Shown one piece after another: positions 27,534 through 28,286 of a stretch of DNA of 64,000 nt; the first letter of the stretch is position 1, and the number at the start of each line of letters is the position of its first letter. Where the stretch lies: assembly GCF_010183535.1 (NCBI RefSeq), contig NC_071331.1, positions 5,952,001 through 6,016,000 on the forward strand, given 5' to 3'. The notes beneath the pieces were generated by a model. That model was not told the origin of the DNA, made no database searches, and worked only from the letters and a program-made list of their open reading frames with translations. Position numbers and translations under genes: made by a program. This DNA comes from Caenorhabditis remanei. Lineage: Eukaryota > Nematoda > Chromadorea > Rhabditida > Rhabditidae.

Positions 27534-27601
27534 AATGTGGAACGCATGGTTGTCCTTAGGGGTGCTCGCTCAACACTAAGATCCTCAAGACCAATCGTTA
27601 C

Positions 27602-27623
27602 CTCAAACTTGGGTAATTAAACC
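27602..27623 (-). other. Exact 22-nt SL1 sequence plus 5' splice site inside the LTR
   Basis: The minus strand reads the whole SL1 exon, GGTTTAATTACCC through GTTTGAG, then GTAACG, so exon and donor junction both copy SL1 RNA. The similarity stops after GAGGTAA: there is no Sm site and no SL RNA fold. It lies about 35-40 nt downstream of a TATATATT box, the place expected for the LTR transcription start. Confidence 0.9.
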
Positions 27624-27820
27624 TTTATTTAATAATATAATAAAGAAAAAGAGATTAAGAATATATAATAGAAAGAAACTTCTTGTGAAGCTTCAATTGG
27701 GGTGAGGAAGGATTACAAAATTAGAAAAGAACTTCCTAGAAAGTTTCTAGAATGTGAGGAGGAAAACAGAAGGGGAAAAATCTAGAAAATGAAAGAAATG
27801 AAAAACTGGAAGAAAAGAAA

Positions 27821-27838
27821 GAAGCTTCTGGGAGCTTC
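27821..27838. promoter_or_regulatory. Heat-shock-element-like array in the LTR
   Basis: GAAGCTTCTGGGAGCTTC is four contiguous alternating nGAAn/nTTCn units with one mismatch. Further perfect GAAnnTTC or TTCnnGAA dimers lie at 27687-27694 and 27745-27752, all within the predicted U3. A palindromic CRE, TGACGTCA, is at 28037-28044. Confidence 0.6.
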
Positions 27839-28286
27839 TATCAAGAATGAGGGATAGAAATGAAGACTGTCTCGCGCCGGCCCGTGGGGCGGAGCCAGAC
27901 TGTTTTCTGGTGAGAGACAATGATCTAGAGAAAAAGCAATAGAGGGAAAAACCATTTGGAAGGTGAGACATGTGGAATGTGTCATGTTGCGGGGGAGGAG
28001 AGGGTGCCCTTTGGGTCCGTCTCCCATCCCACCTCATGACGTCATTGATAATAAAGAAAGGAAAGTACGGATCGAGTACACAATGTTTATACCAGTGGAC
28101 TAATTTACCCAGATTTAAAAATTTCAGTTTTGAAAAATATATAAAAAATTAGTGAGGATTTTTTGAAAGTCCCACAATAGAATTTTGTAACCGTAGTTTT
28201 TTTTCGCAAGCTCTTTTTGTGACTTAAAAAAACAAAAATACCGAGTTTCGAAAATTCTTTCCGTCGGATTATTCGTACTACTTTCA

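What the first reader, a model, noticed from the sequence alone, without database searches (positions are those of the whole stretch)
27539..28080. LTR that encodes the SL1 spliced leader and its splice donor at the predicted transcript start
Seen: all 22 nt of SL1 followed by GTAACG, 35-40 nt downstream of a TATA-like box, inside a TG..CA, 5-bp-duplication solo LTR. There is no Sm site or SL RNA fold, so it is not an SL1 gene. Inferred: RNA from this LTR would begin with an SL1 exon and could cis-splice it onto a downstream acceptor, giving mRNAs that look trans-spliced and gain SL1-dependent capping and translation. I know of no description of an LTR mimicking SL1 this way.
Basis: partly seen in the sequence, partly recalled or inferred. 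Interest (0 to 1): 0.88.

Follow-up and report, generated by a model that had tools for sequence, protein, structure and literature searches.

The report
Spliced leader used as retrotransposon R
A group of worm retrotransposons carries the worm's own 22-letter RNA leader (SL1) inside its terminal repeats at the place where the copying enzyme seems to jump from one end of the RNA to the other, so a host leader may have become part of the element's replication machinery.

Summary
Window 27538-28080 (-) is a 543-bp TG..CA solo LTR with a CAATG duplication and all 22 nt of SL1 (Caenorhabditis remanei). It is no accident: eight BEL/Pao elements in the same genome carry SL1 in both LTRs. The three longest LTR-LTR alignments are 100% identical.

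A better reading is that SL1 is the R region. A poly(A) signal sits directly before it. Unrelated U3s and U5s are recombined exactly at SL1 inside LTRs, five of them with clear 5-bp duplications. This is what first-strand transfer between RNAs of different families would leave, and it implies RNAs that start at SL1 nucleotide 1. Whether host trans-splicing supplies that SL1 (favoured) or transcription starts there is open; no RNA data were available.

SL1 flanking Pao elements is already reported for Brugia malayi (Foster 2020). The R role, the shuffled LTRs and the NeSL insertions into these SL1 copies did not appear in eight literature searches.

The parts
27538..28080 (-). solo LTR, 543 bp, TG...CA, of an SL1-bearing BEL/Pao family
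   Evidence: 94% identical to the 3' LTR (L003) of the full-length relative at C6:~5012.9-5022.8 kb
27533..27537 (.). target-site duplication, copy 1 (CAATG)
28081..28085 (.). target-site duplication, copy 2 (CAATG)
27624..28080 (-). U3 (promoter side), ends TTATATTATTAAATAAA
   Evidence: 457 nt by position relative to SL1 taken as R; U3 differs at 333 of 4511 pairwise sites among five copies
27624..27629 (-). AATAAA poly(A) signal directly before SL1
   Evidence: AATAAA within 14 nt before SL1 in 37 of 64 LTR-type sites against 6 of 2432 control windows
27602..27623 (-). exact SL1 leader, proposed R region
   Evidence: 0 of 220 pairwise site differences among five family copies; breakpoint of U3/U5 shuffling
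27600..27601 (-). GT following SL1
   Evidence: GT in 49 of 64 LTR-type sites; role unknown
27538..27601 (-). U5, 64 nt
   Evidence: in the full-length relative U5 is followed directly by PBS TGGTGCATCG
44814..44835 (-). second SL1 copy (21/22), at the 5' side of a NeSL-type non-LTR element; a separate feature that shares the SL1 target
38323..43554 (-). ORF of the NeSL-type element (Peptidase_C48 + RVT_1)
   Evidence: residues 900-1300 are 99% identical to C. remanei CRE_15818

Best explanation
In this BEL/Pao clade SL1 is the R region of the LTR. The genomic RNA begins at SL1 nucleotide 1 and runs SL1-U5-PBS-gag-pol. At its 3' end the AATAAA at the end of U3 makes the RNA end within or just after the LTR-encoded SL1, so SL1 is repeated at both ends. 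Minus-strand strong-stop cDNA (anti-U5 plus anti-SL1) jumps to the 3' SL1 and copying continues into U3. Because the families share the same R, the cDNA can land on another family's RNA, giving LTRs with one family's U3 and another's U5. Shown: SL1 in both LTRs of full-length elements, the poly(A) signal, and recombination exactly at SL1 in LTRs, some with target duplications. Inferred: that the junctions arose by strand transfer, and that the RNA starts and ends in SL1. Favoured but not shown (about 0.5): the 5' SL1 is supplied by host SL1 trans-splicing, which would rewrite R with host sequence each cycle and explain why SL1 stays exact between unrelated flanks.
For: Eight SL1-SL1 pairs 9.3-10.4 kb apart on one strand each hold a Peptidase_A17 hit in the right orientation. 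Their longest LTR-LTR alignments are 100% identical over 721, 721, 711, 348, 181 and 115 nt and 99.8% over 635 and 609 nt. By eye, 5-bp duplications can be read in 6 of the 8; the other two have a truncated 5' LTR. U3 family 0 (16 sites) is joined at SL1 to seven U5 families, five of which also occur with other U3s. Its U5 is 64/64 identical to that of U3 family 1 in L013 and L014, 64/64 to family 7 in L031 and L037, and 63/64 to family 6 in L086; other donors match at 82-98%. In the 10 copies whose best U5 donor has a different base just before SL1, 10 of 10 carry the family-0 base, so the copied RNA did not extend upstream of SL1 nt 1. Of the 16, five have clear target duplications (L037 ATGTT, L032 AGATA, L036 GAGAC, L094 CTATG, L086 AAAGG) and six have the purine tract upstream. 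AATAAA precedes SL1 in 37 of 64 sites against 6 of 2432 control windows. In the window's family SL1 differs at 0 of 220 pairwise sites, U3 at 333 of 4511. L006 reads SL1 + TTTGAG + U5, as if SL1 had been spliced onto the internal AG of an encoded SL1.
Against: No RNA data: neither the 5' end, the 3' end nor trans-splicing was observed. Only one U3 family (0) is very promiscuous; the 10 informative copies descend from perhaps four or more transfers. Of its 16 sites, three had no U5 donor and five had neither a clear duplication nor a purine tract. Under trans-splicing the acceptor would be the end of the encoded SL1 itself (GTTTGAG|GT), a poor match to worm acceptors (recalled), and GT after SL1 (49 of 64) has no role. 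U3 family 4 lacks AATAAA just before SL1. The 64 sites were found by exact SL1, so exactness across families is partly by selection; LTR copies with 1-3 mismatches exist. Six A17 hits of 111-127 bits have no exact SL1 within 12 kb in the listed set; the one inspected has no recognisable LTR. In Cer1 (Ty3/gypsy) only the spliced mRNA, not the 8-kb RNA, was SL1 trans-spliced (PMC3315495, passages).
Confidence: 0.72

Rival explanations
1. SL1 is encoded and transcription starts exactly at its first G; the element imitates a trans-spliced mRNA in cis. R is still SL1, but nothing is supplied in trans.
For: RNA 5' end at SL1 nt 1 fits the chimeras; TATA boxes occur upstream in some families; SL1 lies directly in the leader before the first long frame.
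Against: The strongest TATA (family 0) lies 43 nt before SL1 in 15 of 16 copies, which by the usual 30-nt rule (recalled) puts the start about 13 nt upstream. The base before SL1 is A in 40 of 64, against a pyrimidine-purine initiator (recalled). It gives no reason why all 22 bases should match SL1.
Confidence: 0.35
2. One reading: SL1 is a 5' exon whose GT donor is cis-spliced onto a downstream acceptor, giving mRNAs that look trans-spliced.
For: GT follows SL1 in 49 of 64 LTR-type sites. Weak CAG sites lie before the first long frame in L095 and L071. LTR donors can outcompete the spliced leader for an acceptor in Echinococcus (PMC4558846, passages).
Against: No strong acceptor motif before gag in 8 of 8; 0 of 64 GTAAG/GTGAG donors (L002, set aside as a NeSL junction, has GTAAG); 15 of 64 sites lack GT. 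It does not explain U3/U5 shuffling at SL1.
Confidence: 0.12
3. Passive relic: an ancestral trans-spliced RNA was reverse-transcribed, and SL1 has been carried along since without function (close to Foster et al.'s wording for Brugia).
For: Similar pattern in Brugia with that interpretation; L006 looks like a leader added to a leader.
Against: SL1 stays exact in recent insertions of families whose U3 and U5 were not joined by BLAST, and it is the recombination point.
Confidence: 0.12
4. The SL1 sites are NeSL insertion scars rather than LTR parts.
For: NeSL-like sequence follows SL1 in 9 of 74 fetched sites, directly in 7, and also in L002, L106, L107, L108, L110.
Against: SL1 is present in both LTRs of eight elements and in LTRs with target duplications. 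NeSL sits in SL1 that was already inside LTRs.
Confidence: 0.02

Closest known systems
SL1 sequences flanking PAO LTR retrotransposons in Brugia malayi (Foster et al. 2020, PMC7181701; passages read)
   Same: SL1 outside SL1 gene arrays; 60 of 120 such copies within 1 kb of PAO elements; occasionally two on the same strand flanking one element; addition of leaders to expressed elements proposed.
   Different: They describe SL1 as added onto element RNA and integrated. The passages seen give no place in U3-R-U5, no poly(A) signal, no U3/U5 chimeras, no role in strand transfer and no NeSL insertions.
BEL/Pao LTR retrotransposons
   Same: LTRs, PBS, purine tract, Peptidase_A17 and RVT domains.
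   Different: R is a host spliced leader. Among the 93 A17 hits entered, those of 166-206 bits show no SL1 LTR; SL1 places on C6 beyond 19.39 Mb and on small contigs were not in the comparison.
Cer1 of C. elegans (Ty3/gypsy; PMC3315495, passages)
   Same: Nematode LTR element with SL1 on one of its mRNAs.
   Different: SL1 joins a spliced 2.4-kb mRNA, not the 8-kb RNA; the passages do not report SL1 as part of the LTR.
NeSL-1 non-LTR elements (recalled from Malik & Eickbush 2000, not held; mentions in PMC4640811, passages)
   Same: Retrotransposons tied to SL1.
   Different: NeSL uses SL1 as an insertion target; here SL1 is part of the element and itself a NeSL target.
Dinoflagellate spliced-leader relics in recycled cDNAs (recalled: Slamovits & Keeling 2008; not looked up)
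   Same: Leader copied into the genome by reverse transcription and then receiving a new leader, like L006.
   Different: Those are host genes, not LTR elements.

Membership tests
BEL/Pao LTR retrotransposon | two LTRs with short target duplication | tested here: met
   5-bp duplications read in six of eight pairs, two with truncated 5' LTR; the window copy is a solo LTR with CAATG
BEL/Pao LTR retrotransposon | PBS after 5' LTR and purine tract before 3' LTR | tested here: met
   TGGTGCATCG after the 5' LTR and GGGAG before the 3' LTR in 8 of 8
BEL/Pao LTR retrotransposon | Pao-type peptidase and reverse transcriptase | tested here: met
   PF05380 127.4 bits and PF00078 37.4 bits in one 1000-aa open piece of the window family's relative; PF05380 in 8 of 8 pairs
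BEL/Pao LTR retrotransposon | RT phylogeny places it in a named lineage (e.g. Tas) | not tested
SL1 RNA gene | SL1 exon followed by SL RNA intron and Sm site | tested here: not met
   sequence after SL1 in the LTR is unlike GTACGCCCGAAAACTGACCC... of the arrays
SL1 RNA gene | Rfam covariance match | tested here: inconclusive
   none in window, but no SL1 match at a real SL1 gene locus either, where only 5S rRNA was found
Brugia-type SL1-flanked PAO element | two same-strand SL1 flanking one element | tested here: met
   eight pairs
SL1 trans-spliced transcript | SL1 joined in trans to element RNA | not testable with these tools
   no RNA data
   none of five motifs in 8 of 8; weak CAG sites in L095 and L071 only; acceptors further down not tested

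The most novel reading that the evidence does not exclude
The R region of these retrotransposons is not inherited from element to element but is rewritten each cycle by the host: SL1 is trans-spliced onto the genomic RNA and copied into both new LTRs, while the LTR copy of SL1 exists only to catch the cDNA. A host RNA is then an obligate part of a retroelement's replication cycle, and a shared host R lets unrelated elements exchange promoters.
Probability: 0.42. Interest if true: 0.92.

Novelty: new variant of a known kind. Interest (0 to 1): 0.74.

Why it matters
LTR elements in animals that trans-splice face a problem: if host SL1 replaces the RNA's 5' end, the two ends no longer match and reverse transcription cannot jump. 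An LTR that encodes SL1 as R would solve this. It would make spliced-leader addition part of retroelement replication, help explain SL1 around Pao elements in Brugia and Caenorhabditis, and let families swap promoters wholesale. It also warns that SL1 at an RNA's end does not prove a trans-spliced host gene, and that these LTRs are landing sites for NeSL elements.

Tried and rejected
Chance: rejected. SL1 gene or pseudogene: rejected. Second window SL1 as the partner LTR of a 17-kb element: rejected; it heads a NeSL element. SL2 in LTRs: 14 places with at most 2 mismatches, none coinciding with the listed SL1 places. Heritable SL1 variants as a test of renewal: L103 and L112 share a change but also flanks, so they are a duplication; L116 and L117 share three changes and could not be judged; the G16-to-A variant has 5 exact places; no decision. 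Sister element without SL1: C2:19328107 shows no recognisable LTR or PBS upstream and says nothing. Relatives in the viral and prokaryote collections: none. Genes near the LTR: no Pfam match in 10 of the 86 listed ORFs. Structure prediction was not used.

Full report
WHAT IS THERE. The window belongs to Caenorhabditis remanei: residues 900-1300 of the NeSL-type ORF are 99% identical to C. remanei CRE_15818, and a C. remanei protein record lies on a contig of 19,935,723 bases, the length of contig C2 of the window's own genome. The window is C4:5952001-6016000. At 27538-28080 on the minus strand there is a 543-bp LTR, TGTACTCG...GCGTTCCA, between two CAATG copies. It holds all 22 bases of SL1 at 27602-27623. 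Directly upstream is AATAAA, directly downstream GTAACG.

FULL-LENGTH RELATIVES. A search with the LTR found 44 matches. A search with 21 nt of SL1 found 295 exact places, of which the first 100 were listed; 48 places continue like one type of SL1 gene. Of the 100 listed, 24 lie in the SL1 array on C3 and 76 outside it; one of the 76 is the window's NeSL. From the rest I obtained 74 distinct contexts that are not SL1 genes. Eight pairs lie 9.3-10.4 kb apart on one strand, and each holds a Pao-type peptidase hit in the right orientation. The longest LTR-LTR alignments are 100% identical over 721, 721, 711, 348, 181 and 115 nt and 99.8% over 635 and 609 nt. By eye, 5-bp duplications can be read in six pairs (AAAAT, ATTTG, GGTAC, TGGAC, AAAAA, CGTAT); the other two have a truncated 5' LTR. 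All eight 5' LTRs are followed by TGGTGCATCG. The relative of the window's LTR is C6:~5012.9-5022.8 kb, with SL1 + GTAACG in both LTRs. A 1000-aa open piece of it carries Peptidase_A17 and RVT_1. Two short elements (SL1 to SL1 1,113 and 1,383 bp) show the same layout; their repeats match at 99.1% over 450 nt and 100% over 127 nt.

IS SL1 TIED TO ONE CLADE? I entered 93 of the chromosomal A17 hits against the 76 listed SL1 places. Those of 166-206 bits show no SL1 LTR; two have an SL1 within 12 kb, but one is an unrelated solo LTR (L094) and the other a NeSL junction (L098). The eight pairs score 131-150 bits. Six hits of 111-127 bits have no listed SL1 within 12 kb; the one that I looked at has no recognisable LTR. 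SL1 places on C6 beyond 19.39 Mb and on small contigs were not in the list, so the restriction to one clade is likely but not complete, and no tree was built.

SL1 IS WHERE UNRELATED LTR HALVES MEET. I clustered the 74 contexts by the sequence before and after SL1. U3 family 0 (16 sites; 15 have TATAAAA 43 nt before SL1) is joined at SL1 to seven U5 families. Five of these also occur with other U3s that BLAST did not join to family 0; two (7 and 17) occur with family 0 only. For L013 and L014 the U5 is 64/64 identical to that of U3 family 1, for L031 and L037 64/64 to family 7, for L086 63/64 to family 6; for the other eight with a donor the match is 82-98%, some over 35-55 nt only. Three of the 16 had no donor. 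In 10 copies the donor has another base just before SL1, and 10 of 10 have the family-0 base; the three whose donor is family 1 share AATAAA or ATAAA with it and are not informative at that base. These copies stem from perhaps four or more transfers. Of the 16, five have a clear 5-bp duplication, six follow a purine tract, and five have neither (L014, L048, L050, L077, and L052 whose candidate is doubtful). So chimeric LTRs were integrated as LTRs. This is the product expected if strong-stop cDNA made on one family's RNA jumped, through a shared R, to another family's RNA. It places the RNA 5' end at or inside SL1.

POLY(A) SIGNAL, SL1 EXACTNESS, GT. I set aside ten of the 74 contexts: nine with NeSL-like sequence after SL1 (one search listed ten; a 24-nt match at L085 was judged chance) and L002. 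The other 64 are called LTR-type; not each was checked for LTR ends. In 63 of 64 all 22 bases of SL1 are present; L075 has A at nt 1. AATAAA lies within 14 nt before SL1 in 37 of 64; in windows further upstream it occurs in 6 of 2432. A variant list that I made by hand raises it to 58 of 64. In the window's family, among five whole LTRs, SL1 differs at 0 of 220 pairwise sites, U3 at 333 of 4511, U5 at 32 of 636; with a sixth, older copy SL1 differs at 5 of 330. LTR copies with 1-3 changes in SL1 exist, and my rows were found by exact SL1. GT follows SL1 in 49 of 64 and GTAAG or GTGAG in none. I cannot explain the GT.

SPLICING. None of five acceptor motifs lies between SL1 and the first long frame (taken as gag by position) in 8 of 8 five-prime regions. 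A looser look found weak CAG sites in L095 and L071. That speaks against an SL1 exon spliced onto gag; later acceptors were not excluded. L006 reads SL1-TTTGAG-GAAACG where a related U5 (L015) reads SL1-GAAACG. This is the product expected if SL1 were trans-spliced to the AG inside the encoded SL1 (CCCAAG|TTTGAG), but a six-base duplication would look the same. It is the only exact case in the genome; of five places with 2 mismatches, two (L016, L017) are LTRs with TTTATG.

HOW SL1 GETS TO THE 5' END. Two versions of the R model remain. In the first, transcription starts in U3 and the host trans-splices SL1 onto the end of the encoded SL1; the LTR copy then serves as the landing place for the cDNA, and R is renewed from the host. 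In the second, transcription starts at the encoded SL1. For the first: the whole 22 bases are explained; the strongest TATA box is 43 nt away, not about 30 (recalled rule); the base before SL1 is A in 40 of 64; L006. Against it: GTTTGAG is a poor acceptor (recalled consensus TTTTCAG). I favour the first at about 0.5 and the second at 0.35.

WHAT IS KNOWN. Foster et al. 2020 (PMC7181701, passages) report for Brugia malayi 120 SL1 copies outside SL1 gene arrays, 60 within 1 kb of PAO retrotransposons, sometimes two on one strand flanking an element, and infer that leaders were added to expressed PAO RNA and integrated. So the association is known and reaches another nematode group. Cer1's spliced mRNA, but not its 8-kb RNA, is SL1 trans-spliced (PMC3315495, passages). 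In Echinococcus an LTR donor competes with the leader for an acceptor (PMC4558846, passages). Searches showed no paper describing SL1 as R or U3/U5 exchange at SL1; three of the lists were cut (30 of 39, 15 of 23, 20 of 54), and apart from the passages named here I judged by title and abstract start. One search served only to look up the species. The library holds open-licence papers only; I read passages of seven papers and no whole paper.

NeSL. NeSL elements target SL1 exons (recalled; spliced-leader-specific NeSL mentioned in PMC4640811, passages). Here NeSL-like sequence follows SL1 inside recognisable LTR U3s, for example L002, L106, L107, L108, L110 and L074. The LTR's SL1 thus seems to make it a target for another retrotransposon.

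CHANGES AT CHECKING. One count was mended (10, not 11, informative chimeras) and the splice-motif and clade statements were narrowed.

Noticed in passing
window 38323-44835 (-): NeSL-type non-LTR retrotransposon with open 1743-aa frame (Ulp1-like protease + RT), headed by 21/22 of SL1 that is not in an SL1 gene array.
   Followed up: partly
L002/L018, L064, L065, L074, L097, L106, L107, L108, L110: NeSL-like sequence inserted right after SL1 (in five of these nine after SL1 plus GT) downstream of LTR-type U3s, starting at different points of the NeSL element.
   Followed up: partly
L006 at 1951; L016 and L017 at 1550 (SL1 start on the element's strand): SL1 followed by TTTGAG or TTTATG before U5, possible relics of a second leader addition.
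   Followed up: partly
G000:C3:5546287-5566607: SL1 array in two unit lengths (about 925 and 788 bp); many 925-bp units also hold a second SL1-like stretch (ACTTAATTACCCAAGTTTGAG) 218 nt before the next SL1.
   Followed up: no
L115: Several SL1-like fragments close together on contig C98, between SL1 genes.
   Followed up: no
L061, L062: Short elements (1.1 and 1.4 kb between SL1s) with SL1 in both repeats, likely non-autonomous.
   Followed up: partly
L003 (internal 3' end): Hydrophobic, possibly envelope-like stretch and a zinc-knuckle-like end in the same frame near the 3' LTR (by eye); a C. brenneri relative (P0129) carries PF07245, recalled as a phlebovirus glycoprotein domain.
   Followed up: no
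window 15-25 kb and 29-37 kb: Large repeated blocks in the same orientation, about 80-92% identical.
   Followed up: no
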